Shown one piece after another: positions 3,458-5,501 of a DNA stretch of 64,000 bases. The translations under genes and the position numbers were made by a program. Source of the stretch: Streptococcus oralis (lineage in GTDB: Bacteria > Bacillota > Bacilli > Lactobacillales > Streptococcaceae); the NCBI RefSeq assembly GCF_022749195.1, contig NZ_CP094226.1, positions 956,001 to 1,020,000 of the forward strand, in the 5' to 3' direction. Positions within the stretch are counted from its first letter, which is position 1, and each line of letters begins with the position of its first letter. The notes beneath the pieces were generated by a model that was given only the letters and a program-made list of their open reading frames with translations, made no database searches and was not told where the DNA came from.

Positions 3458-3594
3458 TTGATTCTCCTATTTATAATTTGTTTATCTAAATGCATCAAAT
3501 CTATTTTTCTAACATCAGAAAATTTACTGTATAAAATAAGGTTTTGCCGTATTTTTCGTCCGTAGGATTAAAAAAGCAGGAAGCCTTCTGAAAA

Positions 3595-3648
3595 TTAATT
3601 ACTCTTCACTAATAGACTTACCGCCTCTGCATGATGCGTTTGCGGAAC
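3595..3648 (-). pseudogene. 3'-end remnant of an rlmD/rumA-type methyltransferase gene
   Basis: On the minus strand, 17 codons followed by TAA read VPQTHHAEAVSLLVKSN. This matches the conserved C-terminal end of RlmD-family 23S rRNA uracil methyltransferases; the intact rlmCD in this window ends FPQTHHVECVALLVRAD. The frame is closed by a stop immediately upstream, so only the gene end survives. It is the best preserved of four such remnants between 3.6 and 5.4 kb. Confidence 0.65.
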
Positions 3649-3665
3649 TCAAAAGGTTTGGGGAG

Positions 3666-3690
3666 TTCAAAGCTCCAGTGGAGCTTTGAA
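3666..3690. repeat. 25-bp perfect palindrome
   Basis: The 12-base arm TTCAAAGCTCCA, a single central G, and the exact reverse complement of the arm. There is no T-run on either side, so it is not a standard terminator. It lies between the rlmD-type 3' remnant and the first repeat copy, in sequence without genes. Confidence 0.7.
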
Positions 3691-3723
3691 GCCTTCTTGC
3701 CTTAAAATGAAAAGGTAAGAGGA

Positions 3724-3768
3724 TTAGCTACGTTTCACTAACAAACTTACACATTCAGCGGTTCGGAT
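3724..3768 (-). pseudogene. rlmD-type 3'-end remnant, repeat copy 1
   Basis: The minus strand encodes IRTAECVSLLVKRS then TAA. AECVSLLVK parallels VECVALLVR at the end of the intact RlmCD. It is fused out of frame to the end of the ADP-ribosylglycohydrolase stub that overlaps it. The same tail recurs at 4615 and 5331. Confidence 0.55.
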
Positions 3769-3883
3769 TTACCGTATCATCCGTGAAAAAACAATCCTCA
3801 CGAAATAATGGAAAGTCTTTTGTTTTGATGTTGTTCCATTCGTAAACTGAACCTACAATATCTCCAATAATAGCTCCTAGCAT
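3755..3883 (-). pseudogene. 5' stub of an ADP-ribosylglycohydrolase gene, copy 1
   Basis: A 42-codon reading frame starts MLGAIIGDIVGSVYEWNN and reaches FFTDDTV, then ends after four further residues at a TGA. MLGAIIGDIVGS and FTDDT are the N-terminal and first metal-binding motifs of the DraG/ADP-ribosylglycohydrolase family, whose members normally run to about 260-300 residues. Only the first 38 codons remain here. A good ribosome site (AAGGAGG) precedes the ATG, so a short peptide could still be made. The remainder of the gene is replaced by the methyltransferase 3' tail. Confidence 0.7.
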
Positions 3884-3923
3884 GGTATTCCTCCTTACAA
3901 ACTGTTAGTTTAGACTGACATTT

Positions 3924-4541
3924 CTACTTGTCATACTCGTCTATTTTATCAGCATATTCAGTTAAAAGATTCTTTGAATAAATTTTTGCATTACTTGAAT
4001 TTCTAACTTCTTTCCAAAGAATAGAAGCAACTTTTAACTTGTTTGAGTAGTTACGACTATTTTCGTCTGCACAGAAGTCCTTTAAAAATTGATTCCATTG
4101 ACAAACCGAATGGTCATACTTGGCATAATCTGAATCTCCATAATAAACTTTTAGCATATCTTGGATTGTGAAATTCAAATCATTTTCTTTTTTTACTTTT
4201 CTCCAAGCAGTGGCCATATCAGCAGTAAATTTAAAGGGCGAAACACCTGTTAAAGTTGAGAAATATTCTCTAAAGTGTGCATTAAAGGAGAATCCACATT
4301 CAAGTAAGGGCGTATCTAAAGTAACGACTTCTACTCGTTTCTTTTTCCTTTTTACTGATGATTTTTTAATCAAATTCCCCTTAAAGTACTGCTCAATAAT
4401 ATCATTGAGTTCTTGTTTTGTACCTCTATTTTCAAGCCCTAATGACTGGCATATCTGTGAAAGTTCATCACGATACCAGTAGTATTTATTAAACTCATTA
4501 AAGGATGAGATTTTTTCAAACACAGGTCTGCTCTCTATCAA
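3924..4541 (-). CDS. SAP / DUF6434-like domain protein
   Basis: A 205-residue soluble protein. Residues about 10-55 (FNKYYWYRDELSQICQSLGL then GTKQELNDIIEQYFKG) look like a SAP helix-extended-helix module, which in other proteins binds DNA or RNA. A basic linker KKSSVKRKKKR follows, and the C-terminal part (CGFSFNAHFREYFSTLTGVSPFKF) resembles DUF6434. The start is TTG at 4541, supported by the strong ribosome site AAGGAGGTG with ideal spacing. It is flanked by two copies of the scar repeat, as a cassette would be. Its actual job is unknown; a nucleic-acid-binding role is inferred from the SAP fold only. Confidence 0.6.
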   Translation of the reverse strand: MIESRPVFEKISSFNEFNKYYWYRDELSQICQSLGLENRGTKQELNDIIEQYFKGNLIKKSSVKRKKKRVEVVTLDTPLLECGFSFNAHFREYFSTLTGVSPFKFTADMATAWRKVKKENDLNFTIQDMLKVYYGDSDYAKYDHSVCQWNQFLKDFCADENSRNYSNKLKVASILWKEVRNSSNAKIYSKNLLTEYADKIDEYDK

Positions 4542-4614
4542 TATAACACCTCCTTAAAAACAGTTTAGGTTTTCATTTCTAAATAATAGTATTTGGGTTT
4601 CTTTATTTTGAGGA

Positions 4615-4659
4615 TTAGCAACGTTTCACTAACAAACTCACACACTCAGCGGTTCGGAC
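4615..4659 (-). pseudogene. rlmD-type 3'-end remnant, repeat copy 2
   Basis: The minus strand encodes VRTAECVSLLVKRC then TAA, the same methyltransferase tail as copy 1. The shared block runs on through the last bases of the ADP-ribosylglycohydrolase stub (to about 4681), but here it is joined to a different truncated reading frame. The rest of the 4542-4874 gap holds that stub and A/T-rich sequence with nothing else that I can support. Confidence 0.55.
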
Positions 4660-4667
4660 TTACCGTA

Positions 4668-4763
4668 TCATCCGTGAAAAACAAAGGCTTTCCCTTCTTC
4701 TAAAGAATCAAAAGCGACTAAATTTTTAAAATAATCATTTTGGTACAATTCCAATAGATACAT
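4668..4763 (-). pseudogene. 31-codon 5' stub of an unknown gene fused to the repeat
   Basis: A short minus-strand frame begins MYLLELYQNDYFKNLVAFDS and continues EEGKAFVFHG before TGA. The last three residues come from the repeat (the bases that encode FFTDD in the other copies, read in another frame). It therefore looks like the start of a gene cut off where the repeat begins. No clear ribosome site was seen, and I do not recognise the family. Confidence 0.45.
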
Positions 4764-4874
4764 CTTTAATCTCTCAATACTTGAAAAACTAACCGATATT
4801 TTAAGCAACTTACAATCAAATTATCTAGCCTTAATATACGCATTTATCATATAACGAAGATAATTAAGTGTTGT

Positions 4875-5285
4875 TTATCCAGGGTCGACATCTATAGAAG
4901 TTATTTTGTAACCATCATTATTGTATAAAAATTCTAATTGTAGGGTTAAATCTACTAATTCAGAATCGGAGGTCATCTCATATTCAACAACAAAGCCAGT
5001 TTGATCATTAAATTCATAAACTTGTAGTTGGGAGTACTCATAATTCGGATGGAAATTACAATCTACACCATATTCATCAATTTTATCAAAATCATTTAAT
5101 TGTAATGAATCGTCAATATATTCAAGTAACTCTCTTACATCATCAACTTCTGAACCATCAACACAATCCAAAATATCTCTATAATTATTTAGATGAATTG
5201 CTCTTAAAATCTTTTTGAGTACTTCAATTACTTTTTCTTCATCTTGGTAGTTTTCTTTGTACTCAAAATCATCGAATATTCCCAT
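4875..5285 (-). CDS. small acidic protein, possible immunity protein
   Basis: A 136-residue, strongly acidic, soluble protein starting MGIFDDFEYKEN. I do not recognise it with confidence; the layout of an N-terminal helical part (about 14-70) and C-terminal strands ending LQLEFLYNNDGYKITSIDVDPG recalls small immunity-like families such as DUF7668. The ATG at 5285 is chosen over the in-frame TTG at 5312 because AGGAAG lies eight bases before it. The gene sits between repeat copies 2 and 3, again as a self-contained cassette. Acidic composition is common in proteins that neutralise nuclease toxins, but no toxin gene is present. Confidence 0.55.
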   Translation of the reverse strand: MGIFDDFEYKENYQDEEKVIEVLKKILRAIHLNNYRDILDCVDGSEVDDVRELLEYIDDSLQLNDFDKIDEYGVDCNFHPNYEYSQLQVYEFNDQTGFVVEYEMTSDSELVDLTLQLEFLYNNDGYKITSIDVDPG

Positions 5286-5330
5286 GATAATACTTCCTTT
5301 TTTTGTAATCAACTTTAAATCTTATGAATA

Positions 5331-5375
5331 TTAAAAATGTTTCACTAACAAACTCACACACTCAGCGGTTCGGAC
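5331..5375 (-). pseudogene. rlmD-type 3'-end remnant, repeat copy 3
   Basis: The minus strand encodes VRTAECVSLLVKHF then TAA. It is the same tail as copies 1 and 2, but similarity stops after GTTAGTGAAAC, so the last two residues differ. It marks the boundary between the ADP-ribosylglycohydrolase stub and the 136-residue gene downstream. Confidence 0.55.
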
Positions 5376-5490
5376 TTACCGTATCATCCGTGAAAAAACA
5401 ATCATCACAAAATAAAGGAAAATCCTTCGTTTTGATATTGTTCCAATCGTAAACTGAACCTACAATATCTCCAATAATTGCTCCTAGCAT
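5362..5490 (-). pseudogene. 5' stub of an ADP-ribosylglycohydrolase gene, copy 3
   Basis: A second 42-codon stub, MLGAIIGDIVGSVYDWNN through FFTDDTV and four extra residues. It ends at exactly the same codon as copy 1. Relative to copy 1 there are several synonymous changes and a few substitutions (E to D, R to C, E to D), so the copies are not a very recent duplication. The start lies 11 bases below the stop of the alpha/beta hydrolase gene and has its own AGGAGG-like ribosome site. Confidence 0.7.
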
Positions 5491-5501
5491 AAGATTCCTC
5501 C

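What the first reader, a model, noticed from the sequence alone, without database searches (positions are those of the whole stretch)
3590..5495. Repeated scars: methyltransferase gene ends fused to ADP-ribosylglycohydrolase starts, framing small gene cassettes
Seen: three copies of a block (3724-3883, 4615-4681, 5331-5490) join the first 38 codons of an ADP-ribosylglycohydrolase gene (copies 1 and 3), or only its last 20 bases (copy 2), to a tail that reads AECVSLLVK in another frame. That tail, and the better preserved VPQTHHAEAVSLLVKSN at 3595-3648, match the C-terminus of the RlmD-type methyltransferase encoded intact at 6353. Between the copies sit single small genes. Known: the 3' end of rumA/rlmD genes is an insertion site of streptococcal ICEs such as ICESp2905. 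Inference: this is a cassette-exchange strip in which repeated gene ends serve as homology or old attachment sites, allowing immunity-like genes to be swapped.
Basis: partly seen in the sequence, partly recalled or inferred. Interest (0 to 1): 0.72.

Follow-up and report, generated by a model that had tools for sequence, protein, structure and literature searches.

The report
Stacked integration scars beyond rlmD
Behind a ribosomal-RNA methyltransferase gene in a Streptococcus, several small genes sit between copies of the same half-and-half DNA junction, which are best read as scars of mobile elements that each landed at the same eight letters at the end of that gene, much as cassettes stack up behind rlmH in staphylococci.

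Summary
The 'rlmD tails' are right halves of attachment sites. Each scar joins a left and a right half-site at an 8-bp core (mostly GAGTGTGT, rlmD codons V|ECV). In 97 rlmD-downstream loci 225 such sites were found, all on the rlmD strand, against none in 378 kb of control. Left and right halves are shuffled, and sequence information switches from left class to right class around the core. Four large serine-integrase genes (two genomic, two in phage records, one named for the rum site) have 3' ends running through the same core. Window units measure 1022, 716, 891 and 129 bp; the same lengths recur elsewhere, and 22 of 22 loci without the 716-bp unit (21 genomes) show the precise empty site. 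A Mef/Msr macrolide-resistance unit (Mega-like) in relatives is bounded by the same kind of site. The window genome has no large serine recombinase, and on a 24-genome tree turnover is slow (1 and 3 changes), so the strip looks like an accretion relic (CIMEs, microCIMEs), movable only in trans or by homologous recombination. Neither 'immunity-like' cargo nor active exchange is shown. New variant of a known kind.

The parts
6353..7720 (-). rlmD (rumA), 23S rRNA m5U methyltransferase; its 3' end is the primary attachment site
   Evidence: TIGR00479 410.3 bits, cut-off 183.55
6378..6385 (-). site 1 core GAGTGTGT: left half rlmD, right half of the hydrolase unit (R7)
   Evidence: the same or a close right half stands behind several unrelated left halves in relatives
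5502..6308 (-). alpha/beta hydrolase gene of the 1022-bp unit
   Evidence: PF00561, PF12697; spacing of 1021-1022 bp seen 3 times including the window
5378..5490 (-). ADPRG' copy 3: 38 codons of an ADP-ribosylglycohydrolase gene, cut after GATACGGT
5356..5363 (-). site 2 core GAGTGTGT: ADPRG'-type left half, right half of the DUF7668 unit
4875..5312 (-). DUF7668 gene of the 716-bp unit
   Evidence: PF24705 E 3.6e-18; spacing of 715-716 bp seen 5 times including the window
4681..4808 (-). c14': cut 5' end of another gene (c14), fused just upstream of site 3; start taken from the ORF, approximate
   Evidence: blastn alignment to c14 of L147; ORF
4640..4647 (-). site 3 core GAGTGTGT: c14'/ADPRG-like left half, right half of the SAP unit
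3924..4541 (-). SAP-domain gene of the 891-bp unit; an 85.4% DNA relative lies near the end of the record of prophage phi-SsuSSJ28_rum
   Evidence: PF18953 E 1.1e-20; spacing of 891 bp seen 4 times including the window
3771..3883 (-). ADPRG' copy 1: 38 codons of an ADP-ribosylglycohydrolase gene
3749..3756 (-). site 4 core GAATGTGT
3628..3748 (-). piece without a listed gene, holding an inverted repeat by eye; 129 bp from site 4 to site 5
   Evidence: sequence; a 129-bp spacing in front of right-half class R20 and the DUF6892 gene occurs in L116
3620..3627 (-). site 5 core GAGGCGGT; left half CGCAAACGCATCATGCA resembles the rlmD end; placed by eye
   Evidence: GAGGCGGT is the core of 8 of 225 model sites elsewhere
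2486..3457 (-). DUF7738/DUF6892 gene beyond the last site
   Evidence: PF21832 E 5.3e-41, PF24880 E 1e-13

Best explanation
The strip is an accretion array of integration scars. Mobile elements with large serine integrases (ICEs, prophages and shortened derivatives) integrate at an 8-bp core, GAGTGTGT or a close variant, in the last codons of rlmD. Each integration puts the newcomer's right half behind the old left half, and the newcomer's left half in front of the old right half, so repeated integration plus loss of the elements' middles leaves head-to-tail hybrid sites with small units between them. In the window the units hold a hydrolase gene, a DUF7668 gene, a SAP-domain gene, and a 129-bp piece without a gene. 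The ADPRG fragments are passengers: a left half-site became fused to the 5' end of an ADP-ribosylglycohydrolase gene that stands in the same interval in relatives, and that composite end was then copied along with several units. SHOWN: hybrid structure, switch zone, single orientation, recurring unit lengths, empty sites, integrase genes running through the same core. INFERRED: that serine integrases made the sites, the order of events, how the ADPRG graft arose. NOT SHOWN: that any unit can still move.
For: (1) Site model: 225 hits of at least 15 bits, all on the rlmD strand, in 97 loci (1.51 Mb); 0 in 378 kb of control. (2) Halves are mixed: 11 of 16 possible combinations of four left and four right classes among 137 classified sites; bases -14 to -1 depend on the left class (p 0.023 or lower each) and bases +9 to +13 on the right class (p 0.003 each, the floor of 300 shuffles). 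(3) Serine-integrase reading frames cross the core: L161 (PF00239, PF07508, PF13408) and L125; phage Javan105 (95.0% identical over residues 1-555 of 559) and phi-SsuFJZZ32_rum (54.6%), ending ...V|ECVVLM and ...V|ECVALLVKN. (4) Spacings recur: 82, 124, 131, 205-209, 715-716, 891, 937-944, 1021-1022, 3247-3249, 5384-5388 bp. (5) Empty site: in 22 of 22 loci with only a site between hydrolase and SAP gene (21 genomes, L035 and L129 being one), the 150 nt left of the site match the hydrolase side of the window (0.86-0.95 against 0.54-0.59) and the 100 nt right match the SAP side (0.75-0.94 against 0.55-0.61) (9 of them first). (6) One unit, many neighbours: the hydrolase unit's right half stands behind rlmD, a duplicate rlmD-like half, the Mef/Msr unit's end and others. 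(7) 24 different C-terminal ends among 71 rlmD ends read in fetched loci, as the published 3'-end exchange between rumA and the integrase gene predicts (PMC4701971, passages).
Against: No PF07508 match in the window genome, and only 14 of 40 genomes searched had one anywhere. On a tree of a downstream gene for 24 genomes the DUF7668 unit needs 1 change and c56 needs 3: slow, lineage-bound turnover that vertical descent or transfer of whole segments could also give. Base -1 depends on both classes, and bases +4 and +6 already lean on the right class (p 0.013, 0.007), so the exact exchange point is not resolved. The test of ADPRG copy order was uninformative: mean identities between classes 0.83-0.97 without clear pattern. 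At least one insert (GntR-ABC-c78) sits in the ADPRG 5' end with no recognised rlmD-type site on its left, so another mechanism also acts here. In 5 of 30 loci read around the end sequence of the Mef/Msr unit that end abuts no such core.
Confidence: 0.78

Rival explanations
1. Cassette exchange by homologous recombination: repeated blocks and flanking genes serve as homology during natural transformation, and no integrase is needed for present variation.
For: Blocks of 76-211 nt at 83-92% identity; mitis-group streptococci are naturally competent (recalled); slow, clustered turnover; the GntR-ABC-c78 insert is flanked by ADPRG 5' copies and not by a recognised rlmD-type site on its left.
Against: It does not by itself create the hybrid sites: the halves are dissimilar and switch around an 8-bp core. 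It does not explain integrase genes that run through the same core.
Confidence: 0.15
2. A working, integron-like cassette system: units excise as circles closed at the core and re-insert at any such site, driven in trans by a visiting serine integrase.
For: One-gene units with constant ends and varied neighbours; same orientation (458 ORFs of at least 100 aa on the rlmD strand against 38); discrete unit lengths.
Against: No circle or excision evidence was available; no PF07508 match in the window genome; few changes on the tree.
Confidence: 0.25
3. The 5' end of the ADPRG gene is itself a second docking site, and each insert brings a replacement 5' end that restores the gene.
For: Of 81 ADPRG 5' copies, 31 behind the hydrolase gene are cut at codon 38, 15 behind the SAP gene run on uncut, and 5 behind the hydrolase gene run on uncut, 4 of them with full-length ORFs of 282-284 aa. 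Four more behind the hydrolase gene, counted as uncut, are cut near codon 43 in front of GntR-ABC-c78, a second cut point. Copies begin near a ribosome-binding site (by eye).
Against: The codon-38 junction lies 14 bp left of the rlmD-type core, inside what looks like its left half-site (ATGATACGGTAAGTCCGAACCGCT), which also occurs without ADPRG. Sequence comparison did not tell host from element copies.
Confidence: 0.25
4. Decayed tandem duplications of rlmD and ADPRG without mobile elements.
For: The tails look like gene ends.
Against: Right halves form many classes (28 clusters), integrase genes carry the same ends, and the sites border resistance and integrase-bearing units.
Confidence: 0.02

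Closest known systems
CIMEs and microCIMEs in accretion with ICEs/IMEs (S. salivarius, PMC7563491, passages seen)
   Same: Units keep att sites but no integrase or transfer genes; tandem stacking at one gene end; units without genes of similar size (130-220 bp there, spacings of 50-252 bp here).
   Different: That paper's composite structures are at rpmG, rpsI, fda and rplL, with two or three elements. Here the site is rlmD/rumA with serine-type integrases, up to six sites in a fetched stretch, and one-gene units.
rumA-integrating ICEs with a single serine integrase (PMC4701971, passages seen)
   Same: Same target gene; exchange of the 3' ends of rumA and the integrase gene, seen again here.
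   Different: The window keeps no integrase; the study's 2-21-bp direct repeats are here seen as an 8-bp core with swapping halves.
Mega (mef/mel), class IV insertion in rumA, and tandem elements there (PMC4321634, passages seen)
   Same: Same gene end; the paper reports Mega in tandem with another element in rumA.
   Different: Absent from the window. The paper proposes a TTTCCNCAA target with coupling sequences. Here a Mef/Msr unit in 13 fetched loci starts at such a core in all 13, behind one constant left half in 11 and rlmD in 2; its recognised right end (10 of 13) faces at least four different right halves.
SCC and the Enterococcus cassette chromosome (PMC6222049, abstract and section 10 seen; insertion behind rlmH is recalled)
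   Same: Large serine recombinases, att sites, multiple attR sites, variable cargo.
   Different: Different target gene and core; related by analogy only. ccr genes were not searched as such.

Membership tests
CIME / microCIME array | units bounded by att sites on both sides | tested here: met
   Four model-detected sites in the window and a fifth by eye; units of 1022, 716, 891 and 129 bp. That the sites are functional att sites is inferred
CIME / microCIME array | no integrase or transfer genes of their own | tested here: met
   No recombinase family among the 9 window proteins scanned; no PF07508 match in the genome. Relaxase families were not searched on their own
CIME / microCIME array | derived from a full ICE or IME | tested here: inconclusive
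   Same core as rum-type integrase genes, but no parent element of the window's units was identified
CIME / microCIME array | can be mobilised | not testable with these tools
   needs excision or transfer experiments
SCC | insertion at rlmH by Ccr recombinases | tested here: not met
   The gene is rlmD (TIGR00479); no PF07508 match in the genome; that Ccr proteins carry PF07508 is recalled
Integron cassette array | attC sites and an integron tyrosine integrase | not tested
   Neither was searched for; the sites share their core with serine integrase genes
Mega element | mef and msr genes | tested here: not met
   No such family among the window proteins scanned; the unit's end pattern has 0 matches in G000

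The most novel reading that the evidence does not exclude
The interval behind rlmD in mitis-group streptococci is a serine-integrase counterpart of an integron array: one-gene cassettes with no recombinase of their own, sharing one core, excised and re-inserted in trans by visiting rum-type phages and ICEs. The Mef/Msr macrolide-resistance unit (Mega), which to my recollection has no known enzyme of its own, is simply one such cassette, and a second docking point in the ADPRG 5' end is repaired at each insertion.
Probability: 0.25. Interest if true: 0.82.

Novelty: new variant of a known kind. Interest (0 to 1): 0.6.

Why it matters
It gives a base-level map of how accessory genes, including a macrolide-resistance unit in relatives, pile up behind rlmD in streptococci, and makes the question of what moves such recombinase-less units testable: the sites name a candidate enzyme class and the core. 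It also shows that RlmD's last residues differ with each right half (24 ends among 71 read).

Tried and rejected
Rejected: chance repeats (control); a purely homologous origin of the junctions; a known RNA family in the left halves: in L117 and L115 the only Rfam matches up to E 0.1 were two to sRNA_1300, inside the Mef/Msr unit about 0.7 kb from the nearest site; a defence role for the window's own units (no PADLOC match). Inconclusive: comparison of ADPRG 5' copies. The record of phi-SsuSSJ28_rum carries a SAP relative, but no site was recognised in the stretch fetched. The plasmid search gave 5 records, none covering 80% of the query.

Limits of the sample. Six named loci (L004, L007, L008, L009, L013, L035) come from contigs of the same length as, and share sequence with, unnamed ones and were not removed from the 97; identical sites were merged. 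The 60 stretches were picked by hand, in large part because they hold the block, so frequencies there are biased; among the 36 named loci, which came through rlmD alone, 35 have at least one site (the rlmD end itself counts), 19 at least two, 8 at least three. Of 241 model hits, those with E over 0.01 or overlapping were dropped (225 left; 142 with the exact core), 190 distinct ones were tabulated and 137 could be classified. Sites with a GAGGCGGT core were partly missed by the model. The tree used 24 of 33 rows; 9 lacked the marker gene, the window among them. ADPRG copies include three genomes counted twice. The end pattern of the Mef/Msr unit matched in 71 of 284 genomes; 30 fetched loci were read, and that each belongs to that unit was not checked. 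In L174, L175, L183, L202 and L203 the end abuts no GAG core.

Papers: searches stand behind the novelty statement. No title listed described this array, but the lists were cut and I opened passages or sections of five papers only.
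Full report
WHAT IS THERE. The window lies in a 1.88-Mb Streptococcus chromosome (genus judged from the hits). rlmD (TIGR00479) runs on the minus strand from 7720 to 6353. Behind it, in the same direction, follow an alpha/beta hydrolase gene, a cut ADP-ribosylglycohydrolase start (ADPRG'), a DUF7668 gene, a cut start of another gene (c14'), a SAP-domain gene, a second ADPRG' and a DUF7738/DUF6892 gene. 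The repeats are real, and a search of the genome with the block found no further copy.

THE TAIL IS HALF OF AN ATTACHMENT SITE. A profile of the junction found 225 sites at E up to 0.01; scored by bits, 225 hits of at least 15, all on the rlmD strand, and none of at least 15 in 378 kb of control (upstream of rlmD in 34 named loci, and 9-64 kb of the window; best 5.1 bits). The sites are a left half and a right half meeting at GAGTGTGT (142 of 225) or a variant, the rlmD codons for ECV after V. The halves are shuffled: rlmD, ADPRG', a hairpin-like half and a palindromic half each precede two or more of four right-half classes. Conditional mutual information with 300 within-class shuffles shows that bases -14 to -1 follow the left class and bases +9 to +13 the right class; the core bases vary little. 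Base -1 shows both, and +4 and +6 lean on the right class, so the exact exchange position is open.

WHICH ENZYME. Two serine-integrase genes lie with their 3' ends in such a site: L161 (559 aa; Resolvase, Recombinase and zinc-ribbon domains) reads ...LDNDEQV|ECVSLLVKRS and L125 reads ...LDNDEQV|ECVSLLEKRS (that genome's copy has an internal stop). Two phage records show the same: Javan105 (95.0% identical) ...LDNDKQV|ECVVLM and phi-SsuFJZZ32_rum (54.6%), whose name marks the rum site...LDNNEHV|ECVALLVKN. This agrees with the published description that ICE integration in rumA swaps the 3' ends of rumA and the integrase gene (PMC4701971, passages seen). RlmD ends differ accordingly: 24 C-terminal sequences among 71 read.

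UNITS. The sites cut the interval into discrete pieces. Of 131 spacings, many recur: 82, 124, 131, 205-209, 715-716, 891, 937-944, 1021-1022, 3247-3249 and 5384-5388 bp. The window's units are 1022, 716, 891 and 129 bp. The 5.4-kb unit of relatives encodes a Mef(A)-type and an Msr-type protein above NCBIfam cut-offs and is by size and content like Mega (5,511 bp in PMC4321634, passages seen); it is not in the window. In the 13 fetched loci with both genes it begins at a core in all 13, behind one constant left half in 11 and directly behind rlmD in 2; its right end was recognised in 10 and faces at least four different right halves. Between hydrolase and SAP gene the content is only a site in 22 loci, c56 in 4, DUF7668 in 3, both in 2 and a GntR-ABC-c78 set in 3. 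In 22 of 22 loci with only a site (21 genomes) that site is the join of the outer halves. In loci where the diacylglycerol-kinase-like gene was found, ORFs of at least 100 aa between rlmD and that gene run with rlmD in 458 cases and against it in 38.

THE ADPRG PIECES. Of 81 ADPRG 5' copies, the gene is cut at codon 38 behind the hydrolase gene in 31, behind c56 in 7, behind SAP in 4; it runs on uncut behind SAP in 15. One search lists 9 as uncut behind the hydrolase gene, but 4 of these are cut near codon 43 in front of GntR-ABC-c78; the other 5 run on, 4 with full-length ORFs. I read this as SAP, c56 and GntR-ABC-c78 sets interrupting the gene's 5' end and ending in a fresh copy of it. Whether it was one fusion at ATGATACGGT, spread with the units, or a second docking site is not decided; the sequence test failed to separate the classes.

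IS IT ALIVE? The window genome has no PF07508 match; 14 of 40 genomes searched have one somewhere. On a tree of a downstream gene from 24 genomes DUF7668 needs 1 change and c56 needs 3. The strip therefore looks like an old accretion, inherited or transferred in blocks, not a rapidly switching locus.

COMPARISON. Tandem elements at one gene end, with cis-mobilisable remnants and gene-free microCIMEs, are described for S. salivarius at other target genes (PMC7563491, passages); tandem elements in rumA for S. pneumoniae (PMC4321634, passages); rumA as a hotspot for ICEs and prophages in S. suis (PMC7168690, passages); and SCC-like cassettes with several att sites in enterococci (PMC6222049, abstract and section 10). 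In the listings of the searches named in Tried and rejected I did not find the shuffled half-site array behind rlmD, its one-gene units, or Mega's ends described as halves of that site; most listed papers were not opened. Verdict: a new variant of a known kind.

Noticed in passing
L008:12137-13921; L126:10851-12584; L163:12647-16381: In relatives the same interval holds defence-like genes: an AbiD/Abi_2 protein, a GmrSD/HEC-05 protein, and a 1244-aa protein with a weak nSTAND-type NTPase match and no PADLOC match.
   Followed up: partly
L135, L155, L157, L167: Runs of related proteins (cluster 10, by eye LXG-like, recalled and not scanned) with small neighbours lie upstream of the array.
   Followed up: no
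L117, L131, L132, L133, L140, L145, L149, L158, L168, L173, L024, L036, L040: A Mef/Msr unit sits behind rlmD in these 13 fetched loci, often after a 124- or 206-bp piece without a gene.
   Followed up: partly
window 1021-1689: A tandem five-TM protein (TIGR01218, E 5.6e-44); related copies vary in number in relatives.
   Followed up: no
L117:18626-18856: A strong Rfam match to Enterococcus sRNA_1300 (275.4 bits); it lies just in front of the mef gene of the Mef/Msr unit, so it may be that gene's leader (inference).
   Followed up: partly
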